Of a stretch of DNA of 64,000 nucleotides, positions 7,412 through 57,216 are shown piece by piece (positions within the stretch are counted from its first letter, which is position 1; the number at the start of each line of letters is the position of its first letter). Position numbers and translations under genes: made by a program. Under the pieces are notes generated by a model that did not search any database, was not told the origin of the DNA, and saw only the letters and a program-made list of their open reading frames with translations. Source of the DNA: Pteria penguin (taxonomy: Eukaryota > Mollusca > Bivalvia > Pterioida > Pteriidae); the NCBI GenBank assembly GCA_035048485.1, contig CM068590.1, positions 12,012,494-12,076,493 on the forward strand, in the 5' to 3' direction.

Positions 7412-8231
7412 CATGCAAAATACGAAAGTAACTGGTGTCACATGACTATGGCACTAACAACAATGTACCACAGTGGACATTCACGGACCCCTGAAATTCA
7501 GAGGTGAGACCAGGTGCCCGGGAGGAGTGAGCATCCCCTGTTTGGCTAGCCACACCCGCCGCGAATGTCCTTACACACAGACGAAACAATAATAATTCAA
7601 CACTGTATATATAAATGAATGTGAACAAACACTGTATAGAAAGCGTCAAAGCCACATAACATCAGGAAAAAGGTATAATAACACTTAAGTCAAACCCCCC
7701 GCGGGGAACTTTTTCACGAGCTCCACACTGCAAAGGGAATAAGTGTGACATTCATGCAAAATACGAAAGTAACTGGTGTCACATGACTATGGCACTAACA
7801 ACAATGTACCACAGTGGACATTCACGGACCCCTGAAATTCAGAGGCGAGACCAGGTGCCCGGGAGGAGTGAGCATCCCCTGTTTGGCTAGCCACACCCGC
7901 CGCGAATGTCCTTACACACAGACGAAACAATAATAATTCAACACTGTATATATAAATGAATGTGAACAAACACTGTATAGAAAGTGTCAAAGCCACATAA
8001 CATCAGGAAAAAGGTATAATAACACTTAAGTCAAACCCCCCGCGGGGAACTTTTTCACGAGCTCCACACTGCAAAGGGAATAAGTGTGACATTCATGCAA
8101 AATACGAAAGTAACTGGTGTCACATGACTATGGCACTAACAACAATGTACCACAGTGGACATTCACGGACCCCTGAAATTCAGAGGTGAGACCAGGTGCC
8201 CGGGAGGATTGAGCATCCCCTGTTTGGCTAG
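7412..8231. repeat. 341-bp tandem repeat, 2.4 units, containing PLE 3' UTR block
   Basis: Units begin at 7412, 7753 and 8094 (exact 341-base spacing). They are nearly identical, and the third breaks off at 8231 into unique sequence. Each unit carries, on the minus strand, the CACCTGGTCTCACCTC-type core typical of the PLE 3' ends in this window (7501, 7842, 8183). The near-identical 69-codon minus ORFs in units 1 and 2 follow from the repeat and are not treated as genes. Confidence 0.9.
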
Positions 8232-10496: not shown

Positions 10497-11877
10497 GTGA
10501 AAAAGAAAAAAGAGGAGTTACTGGCTCAGTTATGTGGCAGAAGTCACCATAGAGCTATACAATACATGAATATAAATAATATACTAGAATATATATCACA
10601 TTACAAAAATATTTGATTGCATTGCAATTACGATACCGACTTAGGACGGTCATTTAATTTGACAAAAGCCAAACAAATGGTGTGGTTAACCGGTTTACGG
10701 GCCCACCTTCCCACTCACCGTAACAGCAGAACAATCAAAGGACGTACATTTAAAAATTTATAAATAATCCTCCATGTAAAGAACAAGGGTCAACAGGCAC
10801 CGCACACCGAGAGGCCACAAAAACACAAACACGTAAGGTACTGCAAAACACACAATGGTACCAAAATATATGCGACATCAACATGATGAACCGTGCCCTG
10901 CCAGTCCGAAAGCGAGCCAAGACCCTAGATCTGTAGGAGTCCCGACTAACAGCCAGAGGGGACGAGGTTCAGGACCATGTCTCCTCTGAAAGAGGTCTGG
11001 ACAAGGCCCGTCATATAGCCCCCCCCCCCCCACCGCCCTGTTAGCCAGCGTGCAACGTTCAAACAAAAGGCTGCAGAGGGGCCAAACACAAGACCCATAG
11101 TCCCCCTGATGATCTCAACACCATATTGTCTACCCAGAAGACCTTTGACCACTCCACCACACGACAAAACAACGTCATCGGAGCCTTCCACTCTTCCCAG
11201 TCCACACACGAGACCACCGCAAAAACAAGGACGGGAAACCCCACCGGACACACACCGCCGAAAAGAAATATCTCCAAACCCAGACAGAAGTTCCGAACAA
11301 GATCCGAAGAACCCGCCGAATGCCCCTCCTAGCCCGCCACACCCGCAACCCTGAGCCAAAAGTTCCGCAGCAACCCGCAAATTTCGTCTACGAAAGTCCA
11401 AAACCTCGGCGCAGCCCCCGACAAATCGAACCAATTGAGACACACAGACACCACACGATGTGAGTCGAGGGACATCGCCATCCAAGCAAGGGAAATTCAC
11501 AATAGGAAATCCAAAATCCCCACATTTATCATAAATATTAGTATATATTGGGTGATTGATAATTTTGATGTTTAAATCTAAGAAAGGTGTAGATTAATCT
11601 CAAGTATTAGCTTTATTCAATGTGAGCTCTGGTGGATAAATTTCTGATATAAATTGTTGGAATTCAGGGTTGTCGATAACCAAAATGTCATCCAGATATC
11701 TGCAAGTATTATTGAATTTGTCAATGAGGTCAAAACGTTTTGATTTTTGAAGAGAAACTATAAAATCCCTCTCATAACAATAAAGAAATAAATCTGCTAT
11801 CAGAGGCGCGCAGTTAGAACCCATAGGAATCCCAACTATTTGTTGATATATCTTGCCATCAAATTGCACAAAAATAT
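10497..11877 (-). mobile_element. PLE1 copy B, 5'-truncated, with hypermutated tract
   Basis: Homologous to copy A (14487-16103) on the same strand. 11600-11877 encodes the RT core IFVQFDGKIYQQ, GIPMGSNCAPLIADL and the active-site box YLDDIL, ending in the TGA shared by all copies (11600-11602). 10946-11500 is the RT C-terminal part and 10497-10797 the 3' UTR. From 10798 to 11520 the plus strand shows T replaced by C throughout relative to A and C. This turns Tyr, Lys, Asn, Ile and Thr codons into Cys, Gly, Arg, Asp, Val and Ala codons. Flanks on both sides are almost unchanged. Homology stops at 11877, the 5' truncation point. Not functional. Confidence 0.9.
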
Positions 11878-12248
11878 TAAAGTTTGATTTTCGATTTATC
11901 ATATTGATTTCATTCATATAATTGTCTAATTGTTCAATATATCTTTAAAAGTTATTTCGCCTTATGGTTTATTTACAATGGCGGCAAATGGAATGTGAGG
12001 CGGTGATGGAGTGAATAAATCGGCTTCATTCATAATCACTCGATATTTTCATCCGCTACTATAAAGTTTACTACAATGACGTAAGCGTTGCAGGATTCGT
12101 AAACTAACGTGGGAGAAAAAGAATCAACCACCACTACCAGTGATGGACAGAGATATCCTAACCCGAGTGTCAAAAATCTCGGTCCTCCACAACGAGGCTT
12201 GCCATCACTGATTGTGCAGTCTGATCGATTGATTGCAATCTGGTCATT
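11878..12248. other. Non-coding stretch
   Basis: Nothing recognised between two PLE1-derived segments. Confidence 0.4.
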
Positions 12249-12311
12249 GAAAGAAAAAAGAGGAGTTACCGGCTCAGTTATGTGGCAGAAGTCACCATGG
12301 AGCTATACAAT
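12247..12311 (-). mobile_element. PLE1 3'-end scrap
   Basis: These 65 bases match the last 65 bases of the PLE1 3' end (GAAAAAAGAGGAGTTACCGG and onward) seen at 10497, 14487 and, inverted, 37105. Homology stops after GCTATACAAT. This is an extreme 5' truncation. Confidence 0.85.
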
Positions 12312-12392
12312 TGAGACCAAGAAGATATCAGGTTTGTAATTCACTAAAGTTCAGCAACTAAATGTCGTTTTTTCATTTCAGATTTAGAGTTT

Positions 12393-13720
12393 TTAGGTAG
12401 TTTTGTAGAGAAATAATAACGTTATCAATAATGTGAAGTGATTGTAAAGAAAGTTCTTGTATTCACGTTTAGAATTATGTCTGATTTTATATGAATGATT
12501 ACGAAAACGGTTTTTCAGTTGCTTTACCTTGAGAGCTAAGTCATTTCTCTGGTATAAAATATCCACCGAGATATGGAATATTGCTACACATAAAGAGAAA
12601 ATCTGTGATACAGAAATTGGAACCGTCACATCTGTCGTGGAATGAGGTTATGATGTGACCACCAATGTTGTTAGATAACATATTATGCAGCTACGAAGTA
12701 TTGTTTTCTCTCTGAGGTATCCTTAATTTTCAGATAATATAAGTAGATAGTATTAGGACAATCTGTGAATGTTGGATTATCATTTGAAAACAAGCCATTT
12801 ATGTATCTGCATATGAAGTTGAACGTTATCGCTTCTTCCCTTTAAAGAGCAAAGACTACATGAATTCAGTCTTGTATGAATAAAGAAATATGTAAGCGAA
12901 GAGCGAGGAACAGTTAGTGCTAACTGAAACCCCAACCATTTCTTGAATCGATTTTCCCTCGAAAACCATAAAACTGTTATCGATTTGAAAATTCAACCCC
13001 TTTATGAAATCAGAATTTTTAAAATCAGATTTCTCCATTACAAAAAAAAAAAAACAAAAAAAAAAGAACCTTGAACAGAAAAAGAATAAAATAAAATAAA
13101 TCGGAATTCGTGGTTGATAATTTCGGAGAGTTTTTTATGTTTCAATATCGAAAAATCAAGTGCTTTCCCTAGCGAATTTTATAAATTTGTCAACATATGG
13201 TACTTCAGATTTCGACCGGTGCCCTTTTGAATTTATATTTGATAAAGACTTATGTCTTAATTTTTTCGAGAAGAAACATCATTGAAAGCCGTTTGAAGTT
13301 CATAAACAATTAGATATAGTACATTCCCTAGAAAAGAAACGATGCAGAACTTTAAATTATTATATATCTTGTGGCACGAGTGGTTGTATCATCTGGAGAG
13401 CAAGAATTTTTCAATTTTTCCAGGTTATTTTTTTCCACATTTACCAAATATTATCTACTGTTTAAGGTGAAGACGATACAGATTTCTGATATACTTTCGA
13501 ATATAATACTTGAATGCATATCTAAATTGAGGGAATTCCAATAAAACGGTAATTTATCGCAAAAGATTCATCCGAAGGAATTATTGATCTATTTAATGAC
13601 ATGTTTGCATGCAAGTGTACATTTGTGTAGTTATTCTTCGCACCAGATTGAATATACTGTTTCATCCATTTATACATAAGATAATGAAAATGTGTAAATA
13701 ATCTAAAGGACACCATTGCT
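12393..13720 (-). pseudogene. Ancient Penelope-like RT remnant (family 3)
   Basis: Several minus-strand ORF pieces line up in order with the RT of family 2. 13522-13716 ends in IIPSDESFAINYRFIG, like the ITPADKASNNYTF box. 12856-13038 reads FMVFEGKSIQEMVG then STNCSSLFAYIFLYSYKTEF, corresponding to the GIPMGTNCALLLADIFLYS box. 12393-12629 holds NFCITDF-like residues and LALKVKQLKNRFRNHSYK, corresponding to the thumb-region RARRLSVKLLNQGY. No single frame is continuous. Divergence is much greater than in families 1 and 2, so this is an old insertion. Confidence 0.7.
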
Positions 13721-14060: not shown

Positions 14061-14486
14061 CTTTCGCTCTCAAGTTTTGAGAAATTTCGATAAAAATTGG
14101 CGGTAATTCTGAATTAATATAGTAAAAGATAAAGTGTAAATAAGTTATGGAAAGGATGATTATGAACATCATAACCCCCCCCCCCCCAACCCCCCTTTGC
14201 CCACTTCACAACAGGGGATAGAAAAACCAAGACCTAAATGCAGCTAGTGAATTTTTTCATCTTTTCATACAACCGTCTCCTAAAATAGCTAAAGAAGCAA
14301 TCAAATATGTTAATGCACAGTATGTTTTCAATAATTGACATATCTCAAGATTTATTATGTACAAATTACTTTTAGTGAAGGACAGGAATGCATTTTAAAT
14401 TCTTCAATATTATATTCCATTATACTTGTACCAACGCGGAGATTAACAGATCATTATGTCATGGTATTTAAAAATCATTTTTTAAA

Positions 14487-16103
14487 AGAAAAAAGAGGAG
14501 TTACCGGCTCAGTTATGTGGCAGAAGTCACCATGGAGCTATACAATACATGAATATAAATAATATAATAGAACATTTAACACATTACAAAAATATTTGAT
14601 TGTAGTGCAATTACGATACCGACTTAGGACGGTCATTTAATTTGACAAAAGCCAAACAAATGGTGTGGTTAACCGGTTTACGGGCCCACCTTCCCACTCA
14701 CCGTAACAGCAGAACAATCAAAAGACGTACATTTAAAAATTTATAAATAATTCTCCATGTAAAGAACAAGGGTCAACAGGTATCGCATATTGAGAGGTCA
14801 TAAAAATATAAACACGTAAGGTATTGTAAAAAACATAATGGTATAAAAATATATGCGACATCAACATGATAAACCGTGCTCTGCCAGTCTGAAACCGAGG
14901 TAAGACCCTAGATCTGTAGGAGTCCCGACTAACAGTCAGAGGGGACGAGGTTCAGGACCATGTCTCCTCTGAAAGAGGTTTGGACAAGGCCCGTCATATA
15001 GTCCCCACCGCCCTGTTAGTCAGCGTGCAACGTTCAAGTAAAAGTCTGCATAAGGCTGTAGAGGGGCCAAATACAAGACCTATAGTCTTTTTGATGATCT
15101 CAATATCATATTGTCTATTTAGGAAACGTTTGACTATTTTATTACATGATAAAATAACGTTATCGGAGCCTTTTACTTTCCTTAGTTTATATACGAGATC
15201 ACCGTAAAAATTAGGATGGGAAATTCCATTGGATACATACTGTTGAAAAGAAATATTTCCAAATTTAGATAGAAGTTCTGAATAAGATCTGAAGAATTTG
15301 CCGAATGTTTTTCTTAGCTTGGGATATCTGTAACCCTGAATTAAAAGTTTAGTAGTAATTTGTAAATTTCGTTTATGAAAGTCCAAAACATCGGTGCAGC
15401 CTCTGACAAATCGAACTAATTGAGATATATAGATACCATATGATGGGAGTCGAGGGACATCGCCATCCAAGTAAGGGAAATTTACAATAGGAAATCCAAA
15501 ATCCTCACGTTTATCATAAATATTAGTATATATTAGGTTGTTGATAATTTTGATGTTTAAATCTAAGAAAGGTGTAGATTTATCTCAAGTATTAGCTTTA
15601 TTCAATGTGAGCTCTGGTGGATATATTTCTGATATAAATTGTTCGAATTCAGGGTTGTCGATAACCAAAATGTCATCCAGATATCTGCAAGTATTATTAA
15701 ATTTGTCAATGAGGTCAAAACGTTTTGATTTTTGAATAGAAACCATAAAATCCCTCTCATAACAATAAAGAAATAAATCTGCTATCAGAGGCGCGCAGTT
15801 AGTACCCATAGGAATCCCAACTATTTGTTGATATATCTTGCCATCAAATTGCACAAAAATATTATTCATGAGAAAATCTAGTGCTTTACATAATTCCTTG
15901 CAAGTCCAGTATTTATATGAAGTATATTGTTTGTTGGAAAAGAACCCAGAGTTATTGGAGGTACATATGTACGTTTTAGATTCTCTGTGAAAACACCATT
16001 GTATAAGAGACAGCAACTTGCTTTTAATCAAATCATGAGGCAGAGATGTATAAAGTGTAGAAAAATCAAATGTAGAAATTTGAGTCGCTTTGAACATTTT
16101 AAA
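14487..16103 (-). mobile_element. PLE1 copy A, RT with one stop
   Basis: Retrotransposon of the Penelope-like order. The RT core ORF (15585-16106) carries FDFSTLYTSLPHDLI, GIPMGTNCAPLIADLFLY and the catalytic CRYLDDILVID box. It ends in a TGA at 15585-15587. The same frame continues past the TGA (STPFLDLNIKI, then the ORF at 14994-15470 with PSYGIYISQLVRF and LLIQGYRYPKLRKTFGKFF). 14487-14990 is the 3' UTR. No GIY-YIG endonuclease is visible at either end. The copy is 5'-truncated about where the RT begins. It keeps canonical residues at the positions changed in copy B. Confidence 0.9.
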
Positions 16104-23840: not shown

Positions 23841-24590
23841 GGAAATGTTCGTAAACAAATATCTGTATATATACGTATTATGTCAAATCAAGTATAGTAT
23901 CAAGTAAGTTAAGATGGTTAGTTTGTAAGGTCAGGTCCTAAAATAACGGTTAACATTCTTCAAAGAGGAATTTGAAATTGCTCTAGAGCATTTCCTCATT
24001 GTAACTTGATGCCTTTTCATTCCTTGGCAGATTGGTACTCATGACCAAAATATGAGACTTTTCATTACTAGATGTGTATGTAAACCCAGAATAAATATCT
24101 TAACACTTGTCACACGTCAGATACTTTCCATTTTCGAAAGACATTTAGAAATATATAAATTGATGTAAAATCACAACATTACCATATTTTGAAGTTGAAG
24201 TGAAACCAAAAGTTAACTACTCGTAAGAGATATTTTTCTAATTGATATGCATATATGCTGATGTGACACAATGTTGCGGATGGTTTATGTGAAATAGATA
24301 ATTGGACATAAAGGGCGTTCATCAGACGATGACCTTAAAAGTAGATTGTAACCGAATGTATTATGATCTTTGATTCAACTTATTACAACTTACATTGATT
24401 TCTCAACTATTAGATATCATATATAAATATTACACCTGTGTCATATTATTTACAAAAATAGTCAGATGACAGATTCACGTTAGTGTTGTGGCATTTGAGG
24501 TGAAAATGAAAAATATCAATTCTATATTGGTATAATGCATATTATTATTACGCGATAGAAAATATCAAACACTGCTTTAAAATTAGTACT

Positions 24591-26723
24591 TTGGGCCTTC
24601 ATCACATTCGTACAAAACTTTATACTATTTCACTCAGAAAATTACACGAGTTGTACGTATCGTCCAGACACCGTATATTTACTGATATAAGCTCTGCAGA
24701 GTATAGACTAGATGGCATTATTATGGACATATCGACCGCTAGACATTTTCGTCCCGTCAAGTCAGATATTTCTATGGAAAAATCTAATCGCCCTTTCATC
24801 AAAATTAAATTTGCAAATAAAGGCATTAATTATTTAAATTTTGGCCAAATTTTAAATCATAAGTCTGTTTTAGAGAAAATACCTCCATATTTCAAAAACA
24901 AAGATCCGCCATGTATTTCCTATAGCTACACGCCATCAGATGCATCCAAAATTTATAATTACAAAGGGTTTCTACAGTGTCTTGATCTTAGCAACTCTGC
25001 ATGCCATCCTCAACCGTGTGCATGTTCCTCATCTAATTTTGTATATTCTCCTTGTGGCCATGTCATTACTAGTGATCTCGATATTGTTAAAAACTCTAAA
25101 TTAAGAGAACTTTTACTTAAAGGTCCAAAATACAGAGAACCCAGATCATACACATGGAGCCAAAATTTTGAGAATATTATGAACTGCTGCGAGGAATATG
25201 CCACACGATGGGCAAAAAGAGAGGAAGTACAAGTCGACACTCTTTCGGAATGGATAAAATCTATTGCAGTACTGCTGAGATCAAAAATTAAAAAATTACA
25301 AGGTTCTGTAAACACCAGATTTGAATCTATTTTTAAAGATCCTGATGTTGTCAGAGAACTTACCTTCCTCCAAGAACATTATATCATTACACCAGCAGAT
25401 AAAGCATCTAATAATTATACATTTACTTGTAAGAAATATTACTTTGACAGCCTAGTGAAAGAATTAGGATTAAATTCAGCGCCAGGAATTCCTACTTATA
25501 CTCTCACAAACTTTTCGGTTTCGGAAGTACTCGAGAATCATAAATCTGTCCTCAATACGTTTGGTATTGACTCAAATAAATTGAATTTAGAACTTCCATA
25601 TTTGTACTGCATTCCAAAAATGCACAAAAATCCTTACAAACAACGCTTTATCGCTGGTTCCTCGAAGTGTTCCACAAAATCTGTATCGATGCTACTCACA
25701 AAAATATTATCAGAAATGAAATCTGGCCTTCATAGATATTGCGAAACAGTATATTCCAGAAGTGGAATTAGTCAAATGTGGATCCTTAAAAATTCAAAAG
25801 AGTTGTTAGAACATCTAAAATCAAAAAGTTTTACTAAAATTCACTCCATCAAGTCTTTTGACTTTTCGACTCTTTACACAACGATCCCTCATCAGAAAAT
25901 AAAAGACAGATTAGCGAAAATTATTCAAAATGCATTTACTAGTAAAAAACGGAAGCCGCAAATTCAAATATATAGTAATAGGCCACGATAAAACTTACTT
26001 TGTTAGGGAAAATTCTGATTCCAAAAATAAATACACTGAAACAGCTGTCATCCAGATGTTGAACTTTCTTATTGATAACATTTTTGTGGTGTTTGGAGGT
26101 AAGGTTTTTCAATAAATTGTCGGCATTCCAATGGGCACTAACTGTGCTCTGCTTCTGGCTGATATATTCCTTTACTCATAAGAAGCTGAATTCATCCAGT
26201 CTTTGCTTTCGCAAGGTAAAAACAATTGGCTCTTGGCTTCAATTTTACTTACAGATATATAGATGACTTGCTTTCAATAAATAATCCTTCATTCGCGGAT
26301 TACCTTAGCATCATCTATCCAAGTGAACTGGAGGTTAAAGAAACCACAGAAAACAGTAATTCTACTTCGTATTTAGATATTATGTTGTCTTTCGACATTA
26401 ATGGTCAATTGAACACCTCACTCTATGACAAACGTGACGATTTCAATTTCGCTATCACAAACTTTCCTTTCATAAGTAGTAACATTCCATCATCGCCCGC
26501 ATACGGCGTATTCATATCTCAGTTAATACGTTATTCCAGAGCATGTTCAAATTACAATGACTTTGTTCTGAGGGCTAGGCGACTTTCAGTTAAGCTGCTC
26601 AACCAGGGTTATATATGTGCTAGAATAGCAACGTCACTGAGGAAGTTCTACGGTCGTTACGAGACTCTTATTACTCCATATGATATCTCGTTATCCAGAC
26701 TTTTAAATGATATTCTGGACTGA
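24591..26723 (+). mobile_element. PLE family 2, most complete copy (RT pseudogene)
   Basis: The first ORF (24591-25991, 466 codons, no clear ATG context) has an N-terminal region. A Cys/His cluster follows near residues 138-156 (HPQPCACSSSNF..YSPCGH), then GPKYREP, the ITPADKASNNY box and the RT fingers FDFSTLYTTIPH. A one-base change in an A-run near 25945 shifts the frame. Reading continues with DKTYFVRENSD and IDNIFVVFGGKVFQ, a TAA at 26113-26115, GIPMGTNCALLLADIFLYS, a second TAA near 26180, another shift near 26220-26240, then the intact catalytic box TYRYIDDLLSINN and thumb region to the stop at 26723. No GIY-YIG endonuclease is seen. Only four lesions separate it from an open RT, so it is relatively young but dead. 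Confidence 0.9.
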
Positions 26724-32804: not shown

Positions 32805-34505
32805 CAAACCGTTAATCATTCTCAAAGTCCAAGGACAGATACAAAATCGTGTAAGTTTCAAAAAGAAACTGTTGTGAACCCCGAAATACTGAAAAATTCC
32901 GAGGTGAGACCAGGTGCCCTGGGAGAGTAAGCGTCTCCTGTTTGCATGCATCACCCGTCACAGCAGTTCTTAAAAAACATGTCAAAATCAAGAGTTTTGG
33001 TTTCCTAATTGTACATACGAAAGTACAAAACTGGTATACAAAGTCATATTTGCTGTTCACTGAACAGGTCATTTAGTCGCATTCCAGAATATTATCAGTC
33101 ATTCTAGAAAGAGGCACATAATATTTTCGTACAAGATCCCCATAGCGACCGTAGAACTTCCTCAGTGACGACTTCAGACGTTCTTTAACATATCCATGCA
33201 TGAGCAACTTAGTGGCCAGTCGTTTGGCCCTTGGAATAAAACCGTCGTATAGAGAACAGGCTCTTGCTTACCTTATAAGTTGAGATATAAAAACTCCATA
33301 GGCAGGTGAGGACGAGATATTGCTGCAAAGAAACGGAAAGTTAGTTATTTGGAAGTTAAAATCGTCACGTTTGTCATACAGAAAGGTGTCCAAATGACTA
33401 TTACTGTCGAAAGTTAAAAATATATCCAGATACGAAGCGGAATCATTGCTCTCGGTTGTCTCTTTTATCTCAAGTTCATGGGGATATATTTCATGTATGT
33501 AATCCTTAAAGTTAGGATTATTGATTGACAATACGTCGTTTATATATCTATACGTAAAATTAAACTGAGATGCAAGGCTTTTTCTGCCTGTGAAGAGCAT
33601 GTTTTGAATAAATTCTGCCTCATACGAATATAAGAAAATGTCAGCAAGAAGAAGGGCGCAGTTAGTGCCCATGGAAATGCCAATGATTTGCTGAAAAATG
33701 TTCCCTCCAAACACCACGAAAATATTGTCTATTAAAAATTCCAGCATTTTGATGATTTGATCTTCGGTATACTTTTGTTTTGCATCAGAGTGTTCTTTTA
33801 CAAAATATGTATCTTCCCGCCCAATGACAAGATTTATATCTACGATTTCCATTTTTATGGAAAAAAGAATTTCGAATAATTGTAGTCTGTTTTTGAGCTT
33901 TTGATGCGGAATTGTAGTGTAGAGCGTGGAGAAGTCAAAAGATTTGACTGAAAATATTATTAAATTTCGGAGATTTTAGATTCTCTAAAAGTTCTTTAGA
34001 ATTCTTGAGGATCCATATCTGATTTATTCCGCTTCTGGAGTATGCGGTATCACAGTAAATTTGAAGACCATGCTTGATGTGTGTCAATATCTTCGTTAGC
34101 GATATAGATAGAGGTTTGGTGGTTCACTTGGAAGAACTAGCAATGAAACGATGCTTGTAAGGGGTTTTGTGCATTTTTGGAATCCAATAAATATAAGGTA
34201 ATTCAAGGTCAGAGTTTGTTGTAGTAATTCCAAAAGACTCGAGGACAGATTTGTGGTTTTGAAGTATTTCAGAAATTTTGTTTGTATGTATGTTGGATTT
34301 CCTGGTTCAGAGTGTAATCCAAGTTCCTCTAACAGACAATGTAAAATCTTTTGCAAACGGAGGTATAATTGTTTGCTGCTTTGTCAGCTGGGACAATAAT
34401 AAATTGTTCGTGGAGTTCAGAGAGTTCTCTGGCTACATCTGTATCTGATGCGGTTATTGAATCAAGACTCAAATCTCTTAGATACACAACGAATTCTATT
34501 ACTGG
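32805..34505 (-). mobile_element. PLE family 2, second copy (RT pseudogene)
   Basis: Read leftwards it has the VARELSELHEQF..VPADKAANNY region (about 34370-34490), a frameshifted stretch at 34096-34356, and the main ORF 33268-33852 with FVVFGGNIFQQIIG and GTNCALLLADIFLYSYEAEF. The catalytic box is TYRYINDVLSINN: the first of the two active-site Asp residues is Asn. The thumb region follows beyond a stop after FISQLIR, then the C-terminus (RYGDLVRKYYVPLSRM) and the 3' UTR with core at 32901-32916. The missing N-terminal part and these lesions make it inactive. Confidence 0.88.
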
Positions 34506-35522: not shown

Positions 35523-37107
35523 TTTCGCTAAATTTCAAAGCGACTCAAATTTCTACATTTGATTTTTCTACAGTTTATACATCTCTGCCTCATGATTTGA
35601 TTAAAAGCAAGTTGCTGTCTCTTATACAATGGTGTTTTCACAAAGAATCTAAAACGTACATATGTACTTCCAATAACTCCGGATTCTTTTCCAACGAACA
35701 ATATACTTCATATAAATACTGGACTTGCAAGGAATTATGTAAAGCAATAGATTTTCTCATGAATAATATTTTTGTTCACTTTGATGGCAAGATATATCAA
35801 CAAATAGTTGGGATTCCTATGGGTACTAACTGCGCGCCTCTGATAGCAGATTTATTTCTTTATTGTTATGAGAGGGATTTTATGGTTTCTATTCAAAAAT
35901 CAAAACGTTTTGACCTCATTGACAAATTTAATAATACTTGCAGATATCTATTATATCAGAAATATATCCACCAGAGCTCATATTGAATAAAGCTAATACT
36001 TGAGAGTAATCTACACCTTTCTTAGATTTAAACATCAAATTATCAACCACCTAATATATACTAATATTTATGATAAACGTGAGGATTTTGGATTTCCTAT
36101 TGCAAATTTCCCTTACTTGGATGGCGATGTCCCTCGACTCCCATCATGTGGTATCTATATATCTCAATTTGTTTGATTTGTCAGAGGCTGCACCGATGTT
36201 TTGGACTTTCATAAACGAAATTTACAAATTTCTACTACACTTTTAACTCAGGGTTACTGATATCACAAGCTAAGAAAAACATTCGGCAAATTCTTCAGAT
36301 CTTATTCAGAACTTATATCTAAATTTGGAAATATTTCTTTTCAACAGTATGTATCCAATGGAATTTCCCATCCTAATTTTTACGGTGATCTCGTATATAA
36401 ACTAAGGAAAGTAAAAGGCTCCGATAACGTTATTTTATCATGTAATAAAATAGTCAAACGTCTTCTAAATAGACAATATGATATTGAGATCATCAAAAAG
36501 ACTATAGGTCTTGTATTTGGCCCCTCTACAGCCTTATGCAGACTTTTACTTGAACGTTGCACGCTGACTAACAGGGCGGTGGGGACTATATGACGGGTCT
36601 TGTCCAAACCTCTTTCAGAGGAGACGTGGTCCTGAACCCCGTCCCCTCTGACTGTTAGTCGCAACTCCTACAGATCTAGGGTCTTAGCTCGCTTTCAGAC
36701 TGGCAGAGCACGGTTTATCATGTTGATGTCGCATATATTTTTATACCATTATGTGTTTTACAATACCTTACGTGTTTATATTTTTATCACCTCTCAATAT
36801 GCTATACCTTTTGACCCTTGTTCTTTACATGGAGGATTATTTATAAATCTTTTAATGTACGTCCTTTGATTGTTCTGCTGTTACGGTGAGTGGGAAGGTG
36901 GTCCCGTAAACCGGTTAACCACACCATTTGTTTGGCTTTTGTCAAATTAAATGACCGTCCTAAGTCGGTATCGTAATTGCACTACAATCAAATATTTTTG
37001 TAATGTGTTATATGTGCTAGTATATTATTTATATTCATGTATTGTACAGCTCCATGGTGACTTCTGCCACATAATTGAGCCAGTAACTCCTCTTTTTCTT
37101 TCAGTTA
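35515..37107 (+). mobile_element. PLE1 copy C, active site deleted
   Basis: Encodes the PLE1 RT core (HDLIKSKLLSLIQWCFH, GIPMGTNCAPLIADLFLY) up to NNTCRYL at about 35948. There a net loss of 40 bases compared with copy A removes the DD of the YLDD box and shifts the frame. The shared TGA is at 36001-36003, and the RT C-terminal part continues with further lesions to about 36590. The 3' UTR ends at 37107 with TAACTCCTCTTTTTCTTTCA. At the hypermutated sites of copy B this copy agrees with copy A, so it serves as an outgroup. Confidence 0.9.
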
Positions 37108-44290: not shown

Positions 44291-47200
44291 ATAGCGCTTT
44301 TCAGCCTTTGCATAAGATCCTGATTATAATGAATCAGGAATTATAACTCTGTCAAAAGTATTTCAAACAGAATATAACATCTTTAGTGGTTTAAACGGTA
44401 TTCATACAATAAATTTATAGATATTTAAAGATATTCATATAAACAAACGTTCTTAGAAAGGAGTAACAAGGAATAATACTTAAATTAATAATAATAATCT
44501 AGGATAACGTACATCAATTATTCAGCTGAATCTAGTAGGAATATTCCGTTAGTACATTAAACAAATTTATATAAAGCACTATATAAAACGATTTACTAAA
44601 AAAGAAGAAAGAAATGACGAATGTTTGAGAAGGAGAAAAATTTATGATAATGGTTATGAAAATCATTAATCATGAATGCGTGTCTCCTACGTGTGATTAA
44701 CTCGTTATTAATTTCCAACCCATTGTTAAAACTGAGGTTATTCAAAAAGTTTAAATCAAATAGGTGCAAATATTTCATTAACGGAAAATCAGGAAACGGC
44801 TATAAATCTGTCAAAGTACGTCAAATCGAACCAAGCTTAATTTAACTAATATTTTTTTCTTACTTCATTATAACGACTTCTTTTACACATATCTCGTAAA
44901 AACGACTTTTTTTAATTTTCTTAATTTGAATTTTACTCTCATAGGGAATTGGAATTTCCTTTCGCATACAATTGCATCATACCTCATATTTTCGAATAAT
45001 ATCTTTATTTTTAGTATATATTGGTGTTTATTCAAAATAATATTTCACTAGATCGGAGACAAAATGACAAATTTCTCCCATTCTGGGATTTTCAACTGGA
45101 TATCACTTGACACTGTCCTAACTGGAAGTGAAACATAGGTCAAAAAAAGAAGTAAACTGTAATGGCAGCCAAGTAACTTCAAAAACATTAATTTCGATGT
45201 TTTGAATATACAATATATAATTGACTTTAACGCATCTTTAAAAAATTATATTGAAAAACTGAAAGTTATAAGCACCTAAATGATATCGTTCATATCATCT
45301 GGTGTGAAAGTCCTTTGGTTCATGGTACTATATATTGACAACTTTCATTACAACCTAATAAAGTTGCCGCGACTCTGTTCTTAATTATTTTAATATCACA
45401 AAGTTTCAAGGCCGAAACACACAAATAATAAATTCAGACATGTATATCGTTTAGTAAATCAAGCATTTGATCCTACCATACCGCTGCGACTCAACGGACG
45501 ACAAACAAGATACATTTTAAAACCCAAGCTTTAGATAGTACGTTACCTTTTGCAGAGGACGTATAGATTGGGATTAACAGATTGAATAGACATGTTATCT
45601 TAAAATAGTGAGTATTTCATTTCATTTTGACGGTTAGTTAACGACACTGGACAATAGTCAGAAATATGACATTTTCTGCTGCAGAATTTTCGACAAGTGT
45701 ATCAATAATAAATCTTGATTAAAACTGCTATACAGTATAATTACGATTTAATATTGTTGTTGTTGTTGTTAAGACAGTAATTGCAGACAATTACGTGAAA
45801 AAATCTCGGAAATTCACGTTTCAAAAGCCGAAATAACGTAGCTATCCGTAACTGGTCTTAGCCGGTAACTGGTACACTACTAGTAGTGCTCTTGTCAAAA
45901 AACGTACACATACATTGTGTTTTACAATGGTCAAAGTGTTAAGTGTTAAATCTAAAAAAAAAAACCTCATAGAATCTCCAGTGCCCTGTTGGTCAGCGTA
46001 CAAGGCTCGAGGAAAATTTTTCATAATGCTGCATAAAAGCCGAATTTACGATGTATGGTTTACTCTGGATGTGGAAGACCTTTGTGTGTGTGTGTCGGGG
46101 GGAGGGGGTATTTTTTACCTGTTCATGTATAAAGGATTTCGGTTTTCACGCGGCTTTTGTAAATCCTTCGTCAACAAAAGTTCAATTGCAGGTTGAAAAG
46201 ATTTTGGTACTGCCTCGTCAATTAAGAATGCTCGGCATCGAATATCTTGATTAGCCATAACATCTTTATCAGTCAAATAAAACAAATCCTATTTCGCATT
46301 TATCGTGAGACCTTTAAATAATATAATAGACTATGGAATGCTCAATGCAGCGAAACGAGTACGAAACTGGCAGTCACTTAGAAATCTTCGTAAGCATTGC
46401 AGAGCATATATTAACCTTTTCATAGTTATATTCAGACAAGATCGACAAACAACAAGTAACATTGAATATTGACATTTCTGATTAAAGAAACGGGTAATCG
46501 TATTTTCAAACTGAAAAATTGGTTCAGTCTCTCCGTTCTAACCTTGTTGTTTTCCTATTTTTTTTTTTTTTTTTTTTTTTTTTTCTTAATTAAGGTAAAC
46601 TATCTTACTAAATTGTAAGGAATCTTGAAATCCATACCTCAGTATTTTGTGAGTGAATTTAAATTTTAGAAAACTATAGAAAGCAACAATTTTGATTCGA
46701 AACTAAACATTAGCTTCTTTACCTGCAATTAGGATTAATTTGGGGCACATGTCCACAATTTTGACATTGTTGGAGTCTGCCTCTTATCCTATATGTCTCA
46801 CTATTTATATTTTTTTTCTTTACGAAAAACGTTGAATTAAAAGACAAAATGTGTTTAAACTATCATTTTGATGGTTTATGATGTTTGCAATATGTGTATA
46901 TCTTCAGAAACAAATAATGTATAAGTAAATATTATTCTTATTAATGCTATTTAAGTGATTTTTGTTTCAAAAATCATTGTTTTTGACTCAAAATGCTGAT
47001 GTTTGCACATAGCTGATGTTTATGACATAAGATTTGGATAAAGATTATCATAAAGTTTTATATATTTATATATATCTATAAATCAAAAAATTAAATCCAT
47101 ACAAATATTTAGTCATATTGGTCCTTTTGTAATTTTCAGCAATATTTCTTTTGGTCTTTTGAATTTGCCAGAAAACTTTTTAACGCGCCAAGCGCAAAAT

Positions 47201-49857
47201 GTTTATATGGTTAAGTTTGTAGCATATTTCTAAAGCATTAAAAATGAAAACTTGTACAACCTTGCTTGGGTTTATGCCCACCAAACTGTATGAAAGGTTT
47301 TACAGATTTTAAGCAACTCTTCTTAAATCAGTCAGTTTTTTCTAAACATCGAAATAAATTGACAAAATATGTTAATATGTTTATTATTAATTAACAATTA
47401 ACAATTATTAATGTACAGCTTAAGAAACCGAAATATATCTTTTTAGAAAAAGGGGATGAATAATTGAGTTTTTCCTATTTTCAGTGATTTATGCTTAAAA
47501 TCGATATATTTTGCCCCCAAAACCCTAATGATCAATTGTTGCATTTTTGATAAACGTTAAAATATCTACTCTTTTCAGAAATACCCCTGTATGGGACAAA
47601 CAATTCTGATTCATTTTCTATTAACCGCACTGTTTAAAAATAGAGTAGTATTTCTAGTATCAGCTGATTAATCGAAGTCTAAATCCCGAAACAACTCAAT
47701 AACTAGTAATTCATTACCACACTGCATCTGGATATCCTCGATTATGTTCGAGCTTTCAAACGAATATGGTTCTAAATTAAACGCATCTTATAAATAGAAT
47801 CTCTTCTGTATAACTTTTACATTCCGTGGGAAAAAGATAATACTACATATTATATCCGAGTAAAGGTTGACTGACAAACATAAATTGGAGGGAAAATTTC
47901 GTCCATCATCTAAAACTGCCTGTAATATTGGATACTGCTTCAAAGCTGACGGATGAATTTGTATTGCACACTGTAATGGTATACTCTCTTTCCCTTACTT
48001 TGCATTTACTCAGATCGATTATTTGTAGCAAGCACAGTAGTTTACAAACACTGAATTAAAATTGAGAAATAGCTTTTTATACGTCTAATATATATAGACA
48101 CTGTGATATTATAAATACCAAACCTCAATATTGGCAGGATATAAAGCAAGCAAATCCATACCTACGTCTTCAAGATGCAGTACATGTATACATTATTTTC
48201 ATTCATTGATTCCACAAACTATTATAATGCTAACGTAATCGAATATTTGATACCAATAATCTATATTACCTTAATCGTGTTATTTATTAACATCTTACCT
48301 TGCTGATAAAATAACATCAATAATTCAAAATTAATTTTCAATATTAGTCGTTCATTTATAAAGGTAAACTAGGTCTTTACGATAACTTGAAACCAAGTTT
48401 CCAAAAGACGAATCTCTCAAACATTTACATTTGAAATACATCGTTAATCATGAATGCGTGTCTCCTACGTGTGATTACTTGTTAACTCGTTATTAATTTC
48501 CTACCCATTGTTAAAACTAAGGTTATTCAAGAATTTTAAATCAAATAGGTACAAACATTTCAAAAACGGAATATCAGGAAACGGCTATAATTAAATCTGT
48601 CAAAGTAGGTCAAATCGAACCAAGATTAATTTATTATTTATTTATTACCTCATTATAACGACTTCCTTTACGCGTAATATCTCGTAAAAACGACTTTTTA
48701 AATTTTTCTAATTTGAATTTTACTCTCCTAGGCTAAGTGTAATTGGCATTTCGTTTCGCTTAAAATTGCACCATACCTCATATTTTCGAATAATGTTTAT
48801 TTTTGGTATATATTCGTGTTTATTCAAAATAATATTTCACTAAATCGGCGACAAAATGACAGATTTTTCCCATTCTGAGATTTTCAACTGGATATCACTT
48901 CACACTGTCCTAACTGGAAGTGAAACATAGGTCAAAGAAAGAAGTAAACTGTGATGGCAGCCAAGTAACTTCAAAAACATTAATTTCGATGTTTTGAATA
49001 TCCAATATATAATCGACTTTAACGCATCATCAAAAAATTATATTGAAAAACTGAAAGTTATAGGCACCTAAATGATATCGTTCATATCATCTGGTGTAAA
49101 AGGCCTTTGGTTCATGGTAATATATATTGACAACTTTTCAAGGCCGAAACACACAAATAATAAATTCAGACATGTATATCGTTTAGTAAATCAAGCATTA
49201 GATCCTACCATACCGCTACGACTCAGTGGACGATAAACAAGATACATTTTAAAACCCAAGCTTTAGATAGTACGTTACCTTTTGCAGAGGACGTATCATT
49301 GGGATTAACAGATTGAATAAACACGTTATACTAAAATAGTGAGTATTTCATTTCATTTTGACGGTTAGTTAACGACACTGGACAATAGTCAGAAATATGA
49401 CATTTTCTGCAGCAGAATTTTCGACAAGTGTATCAATAATAAATCTTGATTAAATCTGATATACGATATAATTACGATTTCATACTGTTGTTGTTGTTCA
49501 CACAGTCATAGTAATATTTTGATCGACGAAATTTCAAACTTTGAACTGTACGTATAATAAAATTTTAACAAGGTCTACTGCCTAGTCTCTGCACAAATAC
49601 CAAGGTTTGTCTAGAATGGGTTTTTCGGCCAAAATTGTGCTATGAAAAAAAAACTTATTGGTAAACGTCATGGAAGTTTATCCTCAAAATTATTTTGTTT
49701 ACTTTAAATTTGTGGTTTTCTATTCTAATTTTAAAAGTTTATGGGTATTGTGTGATTGAATCTAAACGAGACAATGAAACTTATTGAAGTGAAGGAAAAA
49801 AGGAAATTTTCTGTTAATTCAATTGACTGTCAAAACTTATATTGTATACTGGCGAAG

Positions 49858-50062
49858 GACCAGTCCTCGGCTAAGACCAATTACCGGTTTCTACGTTATT
49901 AAGGGTATTTAAAACGTTAATTTGACGAAATTTTCTTATGTAATATTTAGTATCCTATGTATTGCAGACAATTACGTGAAAAAAATCTCGGAAATTCACG
50001 TTTCAAAAGCCGAAATAACGTAGCTATTCATAACTAGTCTTAGCCGGTAACTGGTACACTAC
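49858..50062. repeat. Inverted arms with nested hairpin in unit 2
   Basis: GGCTAAGACCAATTACCGG near 49870 and its near reverse complement at about 50018-50060 (ending AACTAGTCTTAGCCGGTAA) flank about 130 bases. That interval itself contains AATTACGTGAA..TTCACGTTT. Also present in unit 3 (about 54480-54640); unit 1 has lost the left arm. Confidence 0.6.
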
Positions 50063-50301
50063 TAGTAGTGCTCTTGCCAAAAACATACACATACATTGTG
50101 TTTTACAATGGTCAAAGTGTTAAGCGTTAAATCTGAAAAAAAACCTCATAGAATCCCCAATGCCCTCTTGGTCAGCGTACAAGGCTCGAGGAAAAGTTTT
50201 CATAATGCTGCATAAAAGTCGAATTCAGGATGTATGGTTTACTCTGGATGTGGAAGACCTTTGTGTGTGTGTGTGTCGGGGGGGGGGTGTATTTTTTACC
50301 T

Positions 50302-50757
50302 CCAGTTAGGTGCAGTCCTAACCTTACATAAAGTGCACTTCAAGTTAACTTTATGACTGCATTCCAAGTTTACTAAACGACAACAGAGTAAACTTGGAAT
50401 CAAATTTAGTAGTAAACTTGTTTCCAAGTTTAGTTCTAAACTTGATTCCAAGTTTACTCCAAGTGCACTTCAAGTTTCGTTTACTTTCTATATACATGTA
50501 TATTTACTTTATTTTTCTATTAAAACAATTTTTAAATAAAATATGCATTTGTACATAATAAGACAATTATTTCTATCGTGTTATACGAAACAGGATAATT
50601 GTAATGAACAAACGTGAAAAGTAAACTTCGTGTCACGTGATAGTAAACTTGAAGACGGAATTACTTTGAGGTAAATTTGACATCAAGTGCACTTGGCTAA
50701 ACTTTATTACTGGTTTTCAGGAAGATACACTAAACTTGAAGTGCACTTGTCAAAAAC
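50302..50757. mobile_element. MITE family 2 (AAGTGCACTT palindromes), in unit 2 only
   Basis: Absent from the equivalent places in units 1 (about 46115) and 3 (about 54895). Starts CAGTTAGGTGCAGTCCTAAC, is full of AAGTGCACTT and TTCCAAGTTTA repeats near both ends, and has no ORF. Its right half matches 63205-63480 in reverse orientation. Confidence 0.8.
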
Positions 50758-53700
50758 GTCACGGCATTTGTAAATCCTTCGTCAACAAATGTTCAATTGT
50801 AGGTTGAAAAGATTTTGGTACTGCCTCGTTAATTAAGAATGATATATATCGAGTATCTTGATTAACCATAACATCTTTATCAGTCAAATAAAACAAACCC
50901 TATTTCGCATTTATCGTGAGACCTTTAAATAATATAAATAGACTATGGAATGCTCAATGCAGCGAAACGAGTACAAAACTGGCAGTCACTTAGAAATCTT
51001 CGTAAGCATTGCAGAGCATATATTAACCGTTTCATAGTTATATTCAGACAAGATCGACAAATAACAAGTAACATTGAATATTGACATTTCTGATGACAGA
51101 AACGGGTAATCGTATTTTCAAACTGAAAAATTGGTTCAGCCTCTCCGTTCTCACCTTGTTGTTTTCCTCTTTTTTTTTTTCTTAATTAAGGTAAACCATC
51201 TTTCTAAATTGTAGAGAATCATGTAATCCATACAGAGTTTATAATAATCTTACTTTCGTGGATTACCTCAGTATTTCTGAGTGAATTTAAGTTTTAGAAA
51301 ACTATAGAAAGCAACAATTTTGATTCGAAACTAGACATTAGCTTTTTTACCTGCAATTAGGATTAATTTGGGGCACATATCCACAATTTTGACATTTGTT
51401 GGAGTCTGCCTCTTATGCTATATGTCTCACTATTTATATTTTTTTCTTTACGAAAAACGTTGAATTAAAAGTCAAAATGTGTTTAAACCATCATTTGTGA
51501 TTGTTTATGATGTTTGCAATATGTGTATATCTTCAGAAACAAATAATGTATAAGTAAATATTATTCTTCTTAATGCTATGTAAATGATTTTTGTTTCAAA
51601 CATCATTGTTTTTGACTCAAAATGCTGATGTTTGCACATAGCTGATGTTTATGACATAAGATTTGGATAAAGATTATCATAAAGTTTTATATATTTATAT
51701 TTATCTATCGATCAAAAAATTAAATCCATACAAATATTTTAGTCATATTGGTCCTTTTGTAATTTTCAGCAATGTTTGTGTTTGGTCCTTTGAATTTGCC
51801 AGAATACTTTCTAACGCTCCAAGCGTAAAATGTTTATATGGTTAAGTTTGTAGCATATATCTTAACCGTTAAAAAAAAAACTTCGAAATAAATTGACAAA
51901 ATATGTTAATATGTTTATTATTAATTAACAATTAACATTTATTAATGTACAGCTTAAGAAACCGAAATATATCTTTTTTAGAAAAAGGGGATGAATAATT
52001 GAGTTTCTCCTATTTTTCGTGATTTATGCTTAAAATCGATATATGTTGCCCCCAAACCCCTAATGATCAATTGTTGCATTTTTGATAAACGTTAAACAAT
52101 CTACTCTTTTCAGAAATTCCCCCGTATTGGACAAATAATTCTGATTCATTTTCTATTAAACGCACTGTTTAAAAATAGAGTAGTATTTCTAGTGTCAGCT
52201 GATTAATCGATGCCTAAATCCCAAAACAACTCAATAAGTATTAATTCATTACCACATTGCATCTGGATATCCTCGATTATGTTCGAGTTTTCAAACGAAT
52301 ATGGTTCTAAATTAAACGCATCTTATATATAGAATCTCTTCTGTATAACTTTTACATTCCGTGGAAAAAAGATAATACTACATATTATATCGGAGTAAAG
52401 TTTGAATGACAAACAAGAATTGGAGGGAAAGTTTCGTCCATCATCTAAAACTGCCTGTAATATTGGATTCTGCTTCAAAGCTGACGGTTGAATTTGTATT
52501 GCATTCTGTAATGGTATACTCTCTTTTCCTTATTTTGCATTTACTCGAATCGATTATTTGTAGCAAGCACAGTAATTTACAAACACTGAATTAAAATTGA
52601 GAAATAGCTTTTTATACGTCTCATATATATAGACACTGTGATATTATAAATACCAAACCTCAATATTGGCAGGATATAAAGCAAGCAAATCCATACCTAC
52701 GTCTTCAAGATGCAGTACATGTATACATTATTTTCATTCATTGATTCCGCAAACTATTATAATGCTAATGTAATCGAATATTTAATACCAATAATCTATA
52801 TTCCCTTAATCGTGTTATTTTATTAACATTTTACCTTGCTGATAAAATAACATCAATAATTCAAAATTAATTTTCAATATTAGTCGTTCATTTATAAAGG
52901 TAAACTCGGTCTTTACGATAACTTGAAACCAAGTTTCCAAAAGACGAATCTCTCAAACATTTACATTTCAAATACATCGTTAATCATGAATGCGTCTCTC
53001 CTACGTGTGATTACTTGTTAACTCGTTATTTATTTCCAACCCATTGTTAAAACTAAGGTTATTCAATAATTTTAAATCAAATAGGTACAAACATTTCAGA
53101 AACGGAATATTAGGAAACGGCTATAATTAAATCTGTCAAAGTAGGTCAAATCGAACCAAGATTAATTTAACTAATATTTATTTATTACCTCATTATAACG
53201 ACTTCCTTTGCGCATAATATCTCGTAAAAACAATTTTTTAAATTTTTCTAATTTGAATTTTACTCTCCTAGGCTAAGTGTAATTGGCATTTCGTTTCGCT
53301 TAAAATTGCACCATACCTCATATTTTCGAATAATGTTTATTTTTGGTATATATTCGTGTTTATTCAAAATAATATTTCACTAAATCGGCGACAAAATGAC
53401 AGATTTTTCCCATTTTGAGATTTTCAACTGGATATCACTTCACACTGTCCTAACTGGAAGTGAAACATAGGTCAAAGAAAGAAGTAAACTGTGATGGCAG
53501 CCAAGTAACTTCAAAAACATTAATTTCGATGTTTTGAATATCCAATATATAATCGACTTTAACGCATCATAAAAAAAATTATATTAAAAAACTGAAAGTT
53601 ATAGGCACCTAAATGATATCGTTCATATCATCTGGTGTAAAAGGCCTTTGGTTCATGGTAATATATATTGACAACTTTCATCACGACCTAATAAAGTTGC

Positions 53701-56700: not shown

Positions 56701-57216
56701 AACTGCCTGTAATATTGGATACTGCTTCAAAGCTGACAGTTAAATTTGTATTGCATTCTGTAATGGTATACTCTTTTCCTTACTTTGCATTTTACTCGAA
56801 TCGATTATTTGTAGCAAGCACAGTAGTTTACAAACACTGAACTAAAATTGAGAAATAGCTTTTTATACGTCTCATATATACACACTGTGATATTATAATC
56901 GAATATTTGATACCAATAATCTACATGTATTGAATTAAGTGCATTGTGTCAGGATTAGTTACCTCTATCGCATTGTGTGTTCAATTTCAAAAGAAATCTA
57001 AAATATTCACAAAAGTGGCTTACATCATATTACCTTAATCGTGGAAACCAAGTTTCCAAAAGACGAATCTTTCAAACATTTAAATTTCACATTTAAGCTA
57101 AATTTACACAGTAACATTAAGAAGGGATATCAATCGATTATGTTAATACTAGATAATTGCAATTTTAATTTTTACGGAACACAGGTTACCCCAGTGTTTC
57201 AAAAGAAGAGTTTGAG

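What the first reader, a model, noticed from the sequence alone, without database searches (positions are those of the whole stretch)
10798..11520. A-to-G hypermutated tract in one Penelope-like copy, suggesting ADAR-edited RNA was reverse transcribed
Copies A and B of PLE1 are nearly identical outside this tract. In the ungapped 60-base alignment of 11101-11160 (B) with 15086-15145 (A) I count 15 T-to-C changes, 0 C-to-T and 3 others, two of which are private to copy A because copy C agrees with B. The same one-way pattern runs for about 720 bases. In the element's sense direction these are A-to-G. Copy C shares A's state, and A and C keep the residues conserved in other PLE RTs, so B is derived. 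In the places I checked, sense-strand As preceded by G are mostly unchanged, the known ADAR neighbour preference. Sharp borders fit editing of a local RNA duplex, and inverted copies of this family exist here (A and B versus C). Cytidine deamination or ordinary CpG decay would go the other way. I know of no described ADAR-type footprint fixed in a Penelope-like element.
Basis: partly seen in the sequence, partly recalled or inferred. Interest (0 to 1): 0.93.

Follow-up and report, generated by a model that had tools for sequence, protein, structure and literature searches.

The report
ADAR-edited retrotransposon RNA written into DNA
One copy of a jumping element here, and seven more copies elsewhere in the same, apparently animal, genome, carry long stretches where A has become G on the element's coding strand only, most likely because a host RNA-editing enzyme (ADAR) altered the element's RNA before it was copied back into the genome.

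Summary
Confirmed. In copy B (10501-11879, minus) 107 of 117 B-private changes between 10798 and 11520 are A-to-G in the sense strand, against 1 of 71 and 0 of 124 A sites in the flanks. The window's own assembly holds at least seven more such copies, found with the B tract and again with an in-silico A-to-G query; a matched T-to-C query raised none above the unedited plateau. Over eight tracts 1084 of 1241 substitutions are A-to-G; the rate by 5' neighbour falls T, A, C, G, as for ADAR, and copies do not share edits as descendants would. One 3.5-kb copy carries 344 A-to-G changes. Six listed proteins from other, unnamed sources show the same signature. ADAR-family deaminase loci are present. 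Best explanation: double-stranded element RNA was hyper-edited by ADAR, then reverse-transcribed, repeatedly. The duplex partner and RNA-level editing are not shown. ADAR hyper-editing and A-to-G retroviruses are known; five library searches showed no retrotransposon copies fixed this way. In passing: PLE1 carries a SECIS element and fixed in-frame UGA codons, probably a selenoprotein element of a known kind.

The parts
10501..11879 (-). PLE1 copy B, 5'-truncated Penelope-like (Naiad-type) retrotransposon copy
   Evidence: self-BLAST; alignment; distinct 3' flank
10798..11520 (-). A-to-G hypermutated tract of copy B (sense strand of the element)
   Evidence: 107 of 117 B-private changes; 112 of 125 against the 21-copy majority
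14484..16099 (-). PLE1 copy A, unedited; 99-100% identical to the 40 scored genome matches
35534..37101 (+). PLE1 copy C, unedited, inverted relative to A and B, 24 kb away
14942..15005 (-). SECIS element in copy A, overlapping the terminal TGA of the RT frame
   Evidence: Rfam RF00031, 36.6 bits, cut-off 35; also in 18 of 18 genome copies searched, of 20 fetched
15585..15587 (-). in-frame TGA of copy A between RT motifs, shared by A, B and C and seen in the genome copies
10862..11040 (-). under-edited valley inside the tract of B (6 of 34 A sites, 16.2 expected)
   Evidence: the part that is element 1173-1300 is under-edited in the three other spanning copies too

Best explanation
The tract is most likely the imprint of ADAR adenosine deamination on the retrotransposon's RNA, which would then have been reverse-transcribed into the genome with inosine read as G. 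Shown: a strand-specific A-to-G change at about a quarter to a half of all A sites over hundreds to thousands of bases, in eight copies of one family at different places of one genome, with the ADAR 5' neighbour order. Inferred steps: (1) PLE1 transcripts pair with a complementary transcript, from an antisense promoter or an inverted copy, into long double-stranded RNA; (2) ADAR edits the sense strand, often to near saturation; (3) the edited RNA serves as template for target-primed reverse transcription, giving copies that are dead on arrival; (4) this happens repeatedly in the germline, since the copies do not share edits as descendants of one edited copy would, and they differ in age.
For: Strand bias: 1084 of 1241 substitutions in eight tracts are A>G, against 23 T>C, 17 G>A, 27 C>T. 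Matched control: the sense-converted query (94 changes) put 8 copies at 79-86% (371-500 bits) above an unedited plateau of 78% (at most 353 bits); the antisense-converted query (94 changes) gave 78-79% throughout (at most 358 bits); 40 candidates were scored in each. Rate: 45-56% of A sites in six copies, 22-24% in two; PMC12925331 (passages) reports nearly 50% of A sites in regions of A-to-G avian retroviruses. 5' neighbour, pooled: T 429/735, A 358/730, C 157/409, G 139/426, in line with mollusc ADAR1 (T, A, C favoured, GA weak; PMC6651903, passages) and Metazoa (G depleted upstream; PMC5625713, passages). Independence: B and L037, for example, share 75 edits with 34 and 32 single, 59.8 shared expected from 5' context. 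Recurrence elsewhere: 6 of 259 listed proteins have A>G-type runs; the other 11 mutation types together give one, A>T 9 of 12. Means: ADAR-family deaminase matches on five contigs, one locus with HAE, PCGD and SCSDK motifs. Penelope RNA is heavily hyper-edited in a lizard (PMC5625713).
Against: No duplex partner was found: B has no inverted PLE1 match of 150 bases or more within 10 kb on either side. The downstream preference for A reported for invertebrates (PMC5625713) is not seen in the pooled data (3' neighbour G 156/296, A 336/718, T 401/859, C 190/427). A cold zone in the 3' UTR (element 1173-1300; 21 edits, 61.5 expected, 116 sites) is unexplained. Some pairs share more edits than 5' context predicts (B and L040: 63 against 42.0). 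The lightest copy, L043, stands only just above the plateau in the segment searched. PF02137 also covers relatives of ADAR that edit tRNA or are inactive (recalled). No RNA data could be examined, and the G>A genome control did not complete.
Confidence: 0.9

Rival explanations
1. B belongs to a separate G-rich subfamily, or received its tract by gene conversion from one.
For: B is older than copy A: 20 non-A>G differences in its flanks against the 21-copy majority, where A has 2 differences, so it is not a copy of the present main type.
Against: A subfamily would differ in all directions. Eight tracts have different borders and different edit sets, with 1084 of 1241 changes of one kind. Neither search with edited queries showed a second copy with B's G states (40 scored each).
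Confidence: 0.02
2. [quoted passage not shown]
For: ADARs can edit DNA in RNA-DNA hybrids in model substrates (PMC12925331, passages).
Against: Editing of the first cDNA strand would give T>C in the sense strand; the matched query raised no such copy. Misincorporation would not be expected to follow the ADAR 5' neighbour order or to start and stop at borders.
Confidence: 0.05
3. An edited copy became active and multiplied, so that the eight copies reflect one or two editing events.
For: Some pairs share more edits than context predicts (B-L037 75 against 59.8, B-L040 63 against 42.0).
Against: In each of the 28 pairs both members have edits that the other lacks (fewest 3, L043 against B), tract borders differ, and the two copies with fewest other changes (L038, L043; 15 each) have different edit sets. 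The edits alter many conserved residues of the RT.
Confidence: 0.03
4. Adenine-directed random mutagenesis as in diversity-generating retroelements, or cytidine deamination of the APOBEC kind.
For: Both leave clustered changes in reverse-transcribed DNA (recalled).
Against: Changes of A are 1084 to G, 26 to T and 9 to C, not a mixture; cytidine deamination would give G>A or C>T, which are 17 and 27.
Confidence: 0.005

Closest known systems
ADAR hyper-editing of repeat-derived double-stranded RNA, including Penelope in lizard (PMC5625713, passages)
   Same: Dense A-to-G clusters in the same class of element, G depleted 5' of the edited base.
   Different: Known at the RNA level. Here the edited state is in genomic DNA as inserted copies.
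[quoted passage not shown] originals not read)
   Same: Reverse-transcribing element, one-way A-to-G, nearly half of the A sites.
   Different: Retroviruses and limited regions (U3 and an inverted repeat); here a Penelope-like retrotransposon family with tracts of up to kilobases in an assembled genome.
APOBEC DNA editing of retrotransposons (PMC2873906, passages)
   Same: A host deaminase leaves clustered one-way changes in genomic retroelement copies.
   Different: G-to-A from cytidine deamination of cDNA; that survey counted A-to-G/T-to-C clusters in elements only as the smaller comparison class (129 against 247 in human). Here A-to-G dominates and is confined to the sense strand, which points to the RNA stage.
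Naiad Penelope-like elements, some with multiple selenocysteines (Craig et al. 2021, Mol Biol Evol; recalled, not held)
   Same: RT behind an endonuclease-like N-terminal part, SECIS, in-frame UGA codons, high copy number.
   Different: I recall no description there of A-to-G hypermutated copies; not checked.

Membership tests
ADAR hyper-editing footprint | clusters of A-to-G on one strand | tested here: met
   1084 of 1241 substitutions in eight tracts; no copy above the plateau with the matched T>C query
ADAR hyper-editing footprint | 5' neighbour preference with G disfavoured | tested here: met
   T 0.58, A 0.49, C 0.38, G 0.33 pooled
ADAR hyper-editing footprint | 3' neighbour preference (A in invertebrates, per PMC5625713; none strong in molluscs, per PMC6651903) | tested here: inconclusive
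   pooled G 0.53, A 0.47, T 0.47, C 0.45: the A preference is not met; in B alone A is highest, 35 of 57
ADAR hyper-editing footprint | long double-stranded RNA substrate | tested here: inconclusive
   no inverted partner near B; inverted PLE1 pieces lie beside L014 and L037
ADAR hyper-editing footprint | ADAR enzyme in the host | tested here: met
   PF02137 over cut-off on five contigs; catalytic-type motifs in the C5 locus; whether each is ADAR proper was not tested
ADAR hyper-editing footprint | inosine in the RNA | not testable with these tools
   no RNA data
Penelope-like element | PLE-type reverse transcriptase | tested here: inconclusive
   RVT_1 below cut-off (20.6 bits, cut-off 29.6); clear membership in a large family of like proteins, full-length identity up to 75%, whose name Penelope-like is recalled, not given by a call
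Naiad (N-terminal endonuclease PLE) | GIY-YIG endonuclease before the RT | tested here: inconclusive
   motif-like sequence by eye in L028, but no Pfam match
Selenoprotein-encoding element | SECIS behind a frame interrupted only by UGA | tested here: met
   SECIS in copy A and in 18 of 18 genome copies searched; TGA at fixed places in the copies that reach them; private exceptions: L028 one TAA, L009 one more TGA, L024 and L027 out of frame further upstream
Selenoprotein-encoding element | selenocysteine in the protein | not testable with these tools
   no protein or translation data
APOBEC-type DNA editing | G-to-A or C-to-T clusters | tested here: not met
   17 and 27 of 1241 in these copies; the genome-wide G>A query did not complete

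The most novel reading that the evidence does not exclude
ADAR acts as a recurrent germline mutator of this retrotransposon family in at least two animal genomes: RNA edits are written back into chromosomes, so that the genome keeps a record of which transposon transcripts were double-stranded in germ cells, and ADAR works as a mutational defence parallel to APOBEC.
Probability: 0.6. Interest if true: 0.88.

Novelty: new variant of a known kind. Interest (0 to 1): 0.82.

Why it matters
[quoted passage not shown] The copies here carry changes of the kind ADAR makes, fixed in chromosomes several times over in one abundant young family, which makes that question testable by plain genome comparison. 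They would also act as fossils of germline double-stranded RNA: tract borders would give the extent of past duplexes, and the neighbour pattern the enzyme's preference at the time.

Tried and rejected
SECIS hairpin as a shield: in B alone editing dips around the SECIS hairpin (lowest 30-site window reached in 2 of 5000 permutations), but over the four copies that span it the hairpin itself is edited about as expected (30 against 35.0 of 76 sites; 277 of 2000 permutations as low), so I dropped that idea. The cold zone lies just 3' of it and shows no unusual fold (z -0.61). Self-pairing as a predictor of unedited sites: not significant (p 0.22). Other hypermutated repeats: a scan of the repeats of the window and of L009-L028 found the pattern only in pairs with B. 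Plasmid collection: no match. Literature: searches (listings with the start of abstracts, 20, 10, 20, 10 and 10 papers shown) showed no title or abstract on ADAR-type hypermutated retrotransposon copies in genomic DNA; only passages of five papers were read, and only open-licence papers are held, so this is weak negative evidence. Searches on selenocysteine and Penelope or Naiad elements listed nothing on the point.

Full report
Observation. The window holds three 3' parts of one Penelope-like family, PLE1: B (10501-11879, minus), A (14484-16099, minus) and C (35534-37101, plus). In the sense direction B differs from A and C by A-to-G at 107 of 117 B-private sites between 10798 and 11520. The remaining 10 are T>G 3, C>G 2 and one each of C>A, A>T, G>A, C>T and T>C; the stretch counted, 10779-11521, has 199 A sites. 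Flanks: 1 of 71 and 0 of 124 A sites. A and C have 7 and 12 private changes in the tract, without bias.

Derived state. The window's assembly is held (G000, 838 Mb, 49 contigs). A search with copy A gave 2194 first-look candidates; the 40 that were scored, A itself included, are 99-100% identical to A. Twenty of the 40 were fetched. Against the majority of A and these 20, B has 112 A>G of 125 tract differences; the 20 have 0 or 1 A>G each in the tract. Because they were chosen by likeness to A they are no fair sample for the frequency of edited copies. The 37 related proteins aligned carry A's residues, not B's, at conserved places.

More edited copies in the same genome. A search with B 11041-11460 gave B at 100% and then seven copies at 76-86%; from there on the list runs at 75-76% (40 scored of 430). 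I fetched these seven, and all seven are A-to-G hypermutated. Two further places at 76% (on C12 and C3) were not fetched; the C3 one lies on the plateau, the C12 one is not listed there. Tracts as A>G / A sites / other changes: B 112/205/13, L037 183/357/27, L038 218/395/13, L039 154/276/34, L040 134/249/23, L041 178/400/30, L042 51/231/10, L043 54/223/7. Left out of these counts: L042 before element 481 and L040 beyond about 1000, where the alignment is bad. The starts of L038, L039 and L041 are edges of the stretch fetched. With flanking stretches for four of the seven (both sides for L038 and L043, upstream only for L037 and L041), L043 shows 344 A>G in a tract of about 2.8 kb, L041 333, L038 301 and L037 185 (reference copy L028).

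Controls. A query with A>G at the TA and AA sites of element 654-1081 (94 changes) put exactly these eight copies above the plateau (79-86%, 371-500 bits, against 78%, at most 353 bits). A query with 94 mirrored T>C changes gave only 78-79% (at most 358 bits). A 5' segment (108 changes) put L043 and L041 above a plateau of 75-76% and L038 slightly (77% over part of it); no new copy stood out. The G>A query did not complete, so cytidine-type copies were not sought genome-wide. Each search scores only 40 candidates, so eight is a lower bound.

Enzyme signature. Pooled 5' neighbours: T 429/735, A 358/730, C 157/409, G 139/426. 3' neighbours: G 156/296, A 336/718, T 401/859, C 190/427. The 5' order is that of ADAR; oyster and abalone ADAR1 favour T, A, C and show no strong 3' preference (PMC6651903, passages). 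The 3' preference for A reported for invertebrates (PMC5625713, passages) is seen in B alone but not in the pool. Six copies are edited at 45-56% of A sites, near the level reported for regions of avian retroviruses (PMC12925331, passages); two at 22-24%. The genome has PF02137 deaminase matches on five contigs, 19 places in all; the C5 locus keeps the HAE, PCGD and SCSDK motifs (the motif meaning is recalled, and PF02137 also holds relatives that are not ADAR proper).

Independence. In all 28 pairs of the eight copies both members have edits that the other lacks (fewest: 3 private to L043 against B); odds ratios run from 1.1 to 3.9. Some pairs share more than 5' context predicts, which local rate differences such as the cold zone could produce. 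L038 and L043 have 15 non-A>G differences each over 1423 bases, the others more, so the events differ in age and some look recent.

Other genomes. Three protein searches found 6161, 375 and 1208 proteins and listed 120 each, 259 distinct ones with the query. Scanned for runs in which at least 9 of 12 consecutive differences fit one mutation type, 6 fit A>G (P0034 65/67, P0122 45/46, P0147 27/29, P0221 49/55, P0222 25/28, P0226 43/46); among the other 11 types only one protein did (P0258, A>T, 9 of 12). Two of the searches used edited queries, which favours edited proteins, and A>G keeps frames open, so the counts are no frequencies; T>C, which also makes no stops, is the fair comparison and gave none. 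P0034 was already in the list found with the unedited query. The sources are unnamed. No listed protein exceeds 78% identity to the C-terminal half of copy A (219 with 150 or more aligned residues), and the unedited copy A would score 218 bits against B, more than the best hit listed (201 bits); so this genome's PLE1 seems not to be in that database, and the six come from other genomes or at least other subfamilies.

Mechanism. First-strand cDNA editing would give T>C in the sense strand, so the RNA stage is the simplest place. Inosine is read as G in reverse transcription (established knowledge). What formed the duplex is unknown. Copy C is 24 kb from B and unedited. Inverted PLE1 pieces lie beside L014 and L037, where the inverted 430-base piece is 98% identical and unedited, so inverted insertions do occur in this family. 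Tracts of kilobases ask for a long complementary RNA.

Cold zone. In the four copies whose tracts span it (B, L037, L038, L041), element 1173-1300 in the 3' UTR has 21 edits against 61.5 expected at 116 sites, and the three A sites at 1308-1311 are edited in all four. The SECIS hairpin next to it (1078-1172) is edited about as expected. A bound protein, a missing stretch in the partner RNA or a tertiary structure are possible; none was tested.

Side finding. PLE1 copies have a long RT frame whose fixed interruptions are TGA codons, with SECIS_1 over the terminal TGA in copy A and in 18 of 18 genome copies searched. At one TGA three other proteins have W and one has C (P0011, P0015, P0016, P0120). 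I recall that Craig et al. 2021 described Naiad elements of clams and spiders with several selenocysteines; the paper is not held and library searches did not list it. So this is probably a known kind.

Verdict. The footprint is real, recurrent and strand-specific, and ADAR editing before reverse transcription explains it best.

Noticed in passing
14942-15005 (-), 15585-15587 (-); L009-L028: SECIS element and fixed in-frame TGA codons in PLE1: probably a selenoprotein-encoding Naiad-type element (kind recalled as known).
   Followed up: partly
element 1173-1300, in B about 10816-10943: Cold zone for A-to-G in the 3' UTR, shared by the four edited copies that span it; unexplained.
   Followed up: partly
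L037 with L049 (C1:91162000-91165110): Complex insertion: several unedited PLE1 pieces, one inverted, directly upstream of an edited copy.
   Followed up: partly
12250-12580: Another PLE1-like remnant: an endonuclease-like piece (by eye) joined to the 3' tail sequence of the family.
   Followed up: no
24510-26723 (+) and 33143-34446 (-): A second Penelope-like family: two copies, 69% alike, in inverted orientation, without in-frame TGA at the PLE1 place.
   Followed up: no
44662-56898: Large array of long repeats, 89-96% alike, in units of hundreds to thousands of bases.
   Followed up: no
61290-62204 (+): AIG1/GIMAP-type GTPase frame (Pfam AIG1, 196.5 bits).
   Followed up: no
7412-8231: Two stretches offset by 341 bases and overlapping, 99% identical: a recent tandem duplication.
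   Followed up: no
about 11020-11032: Copy B has 8 extra bases in a G run compared with A and C, inside the under-edited part.
   Followed up: no
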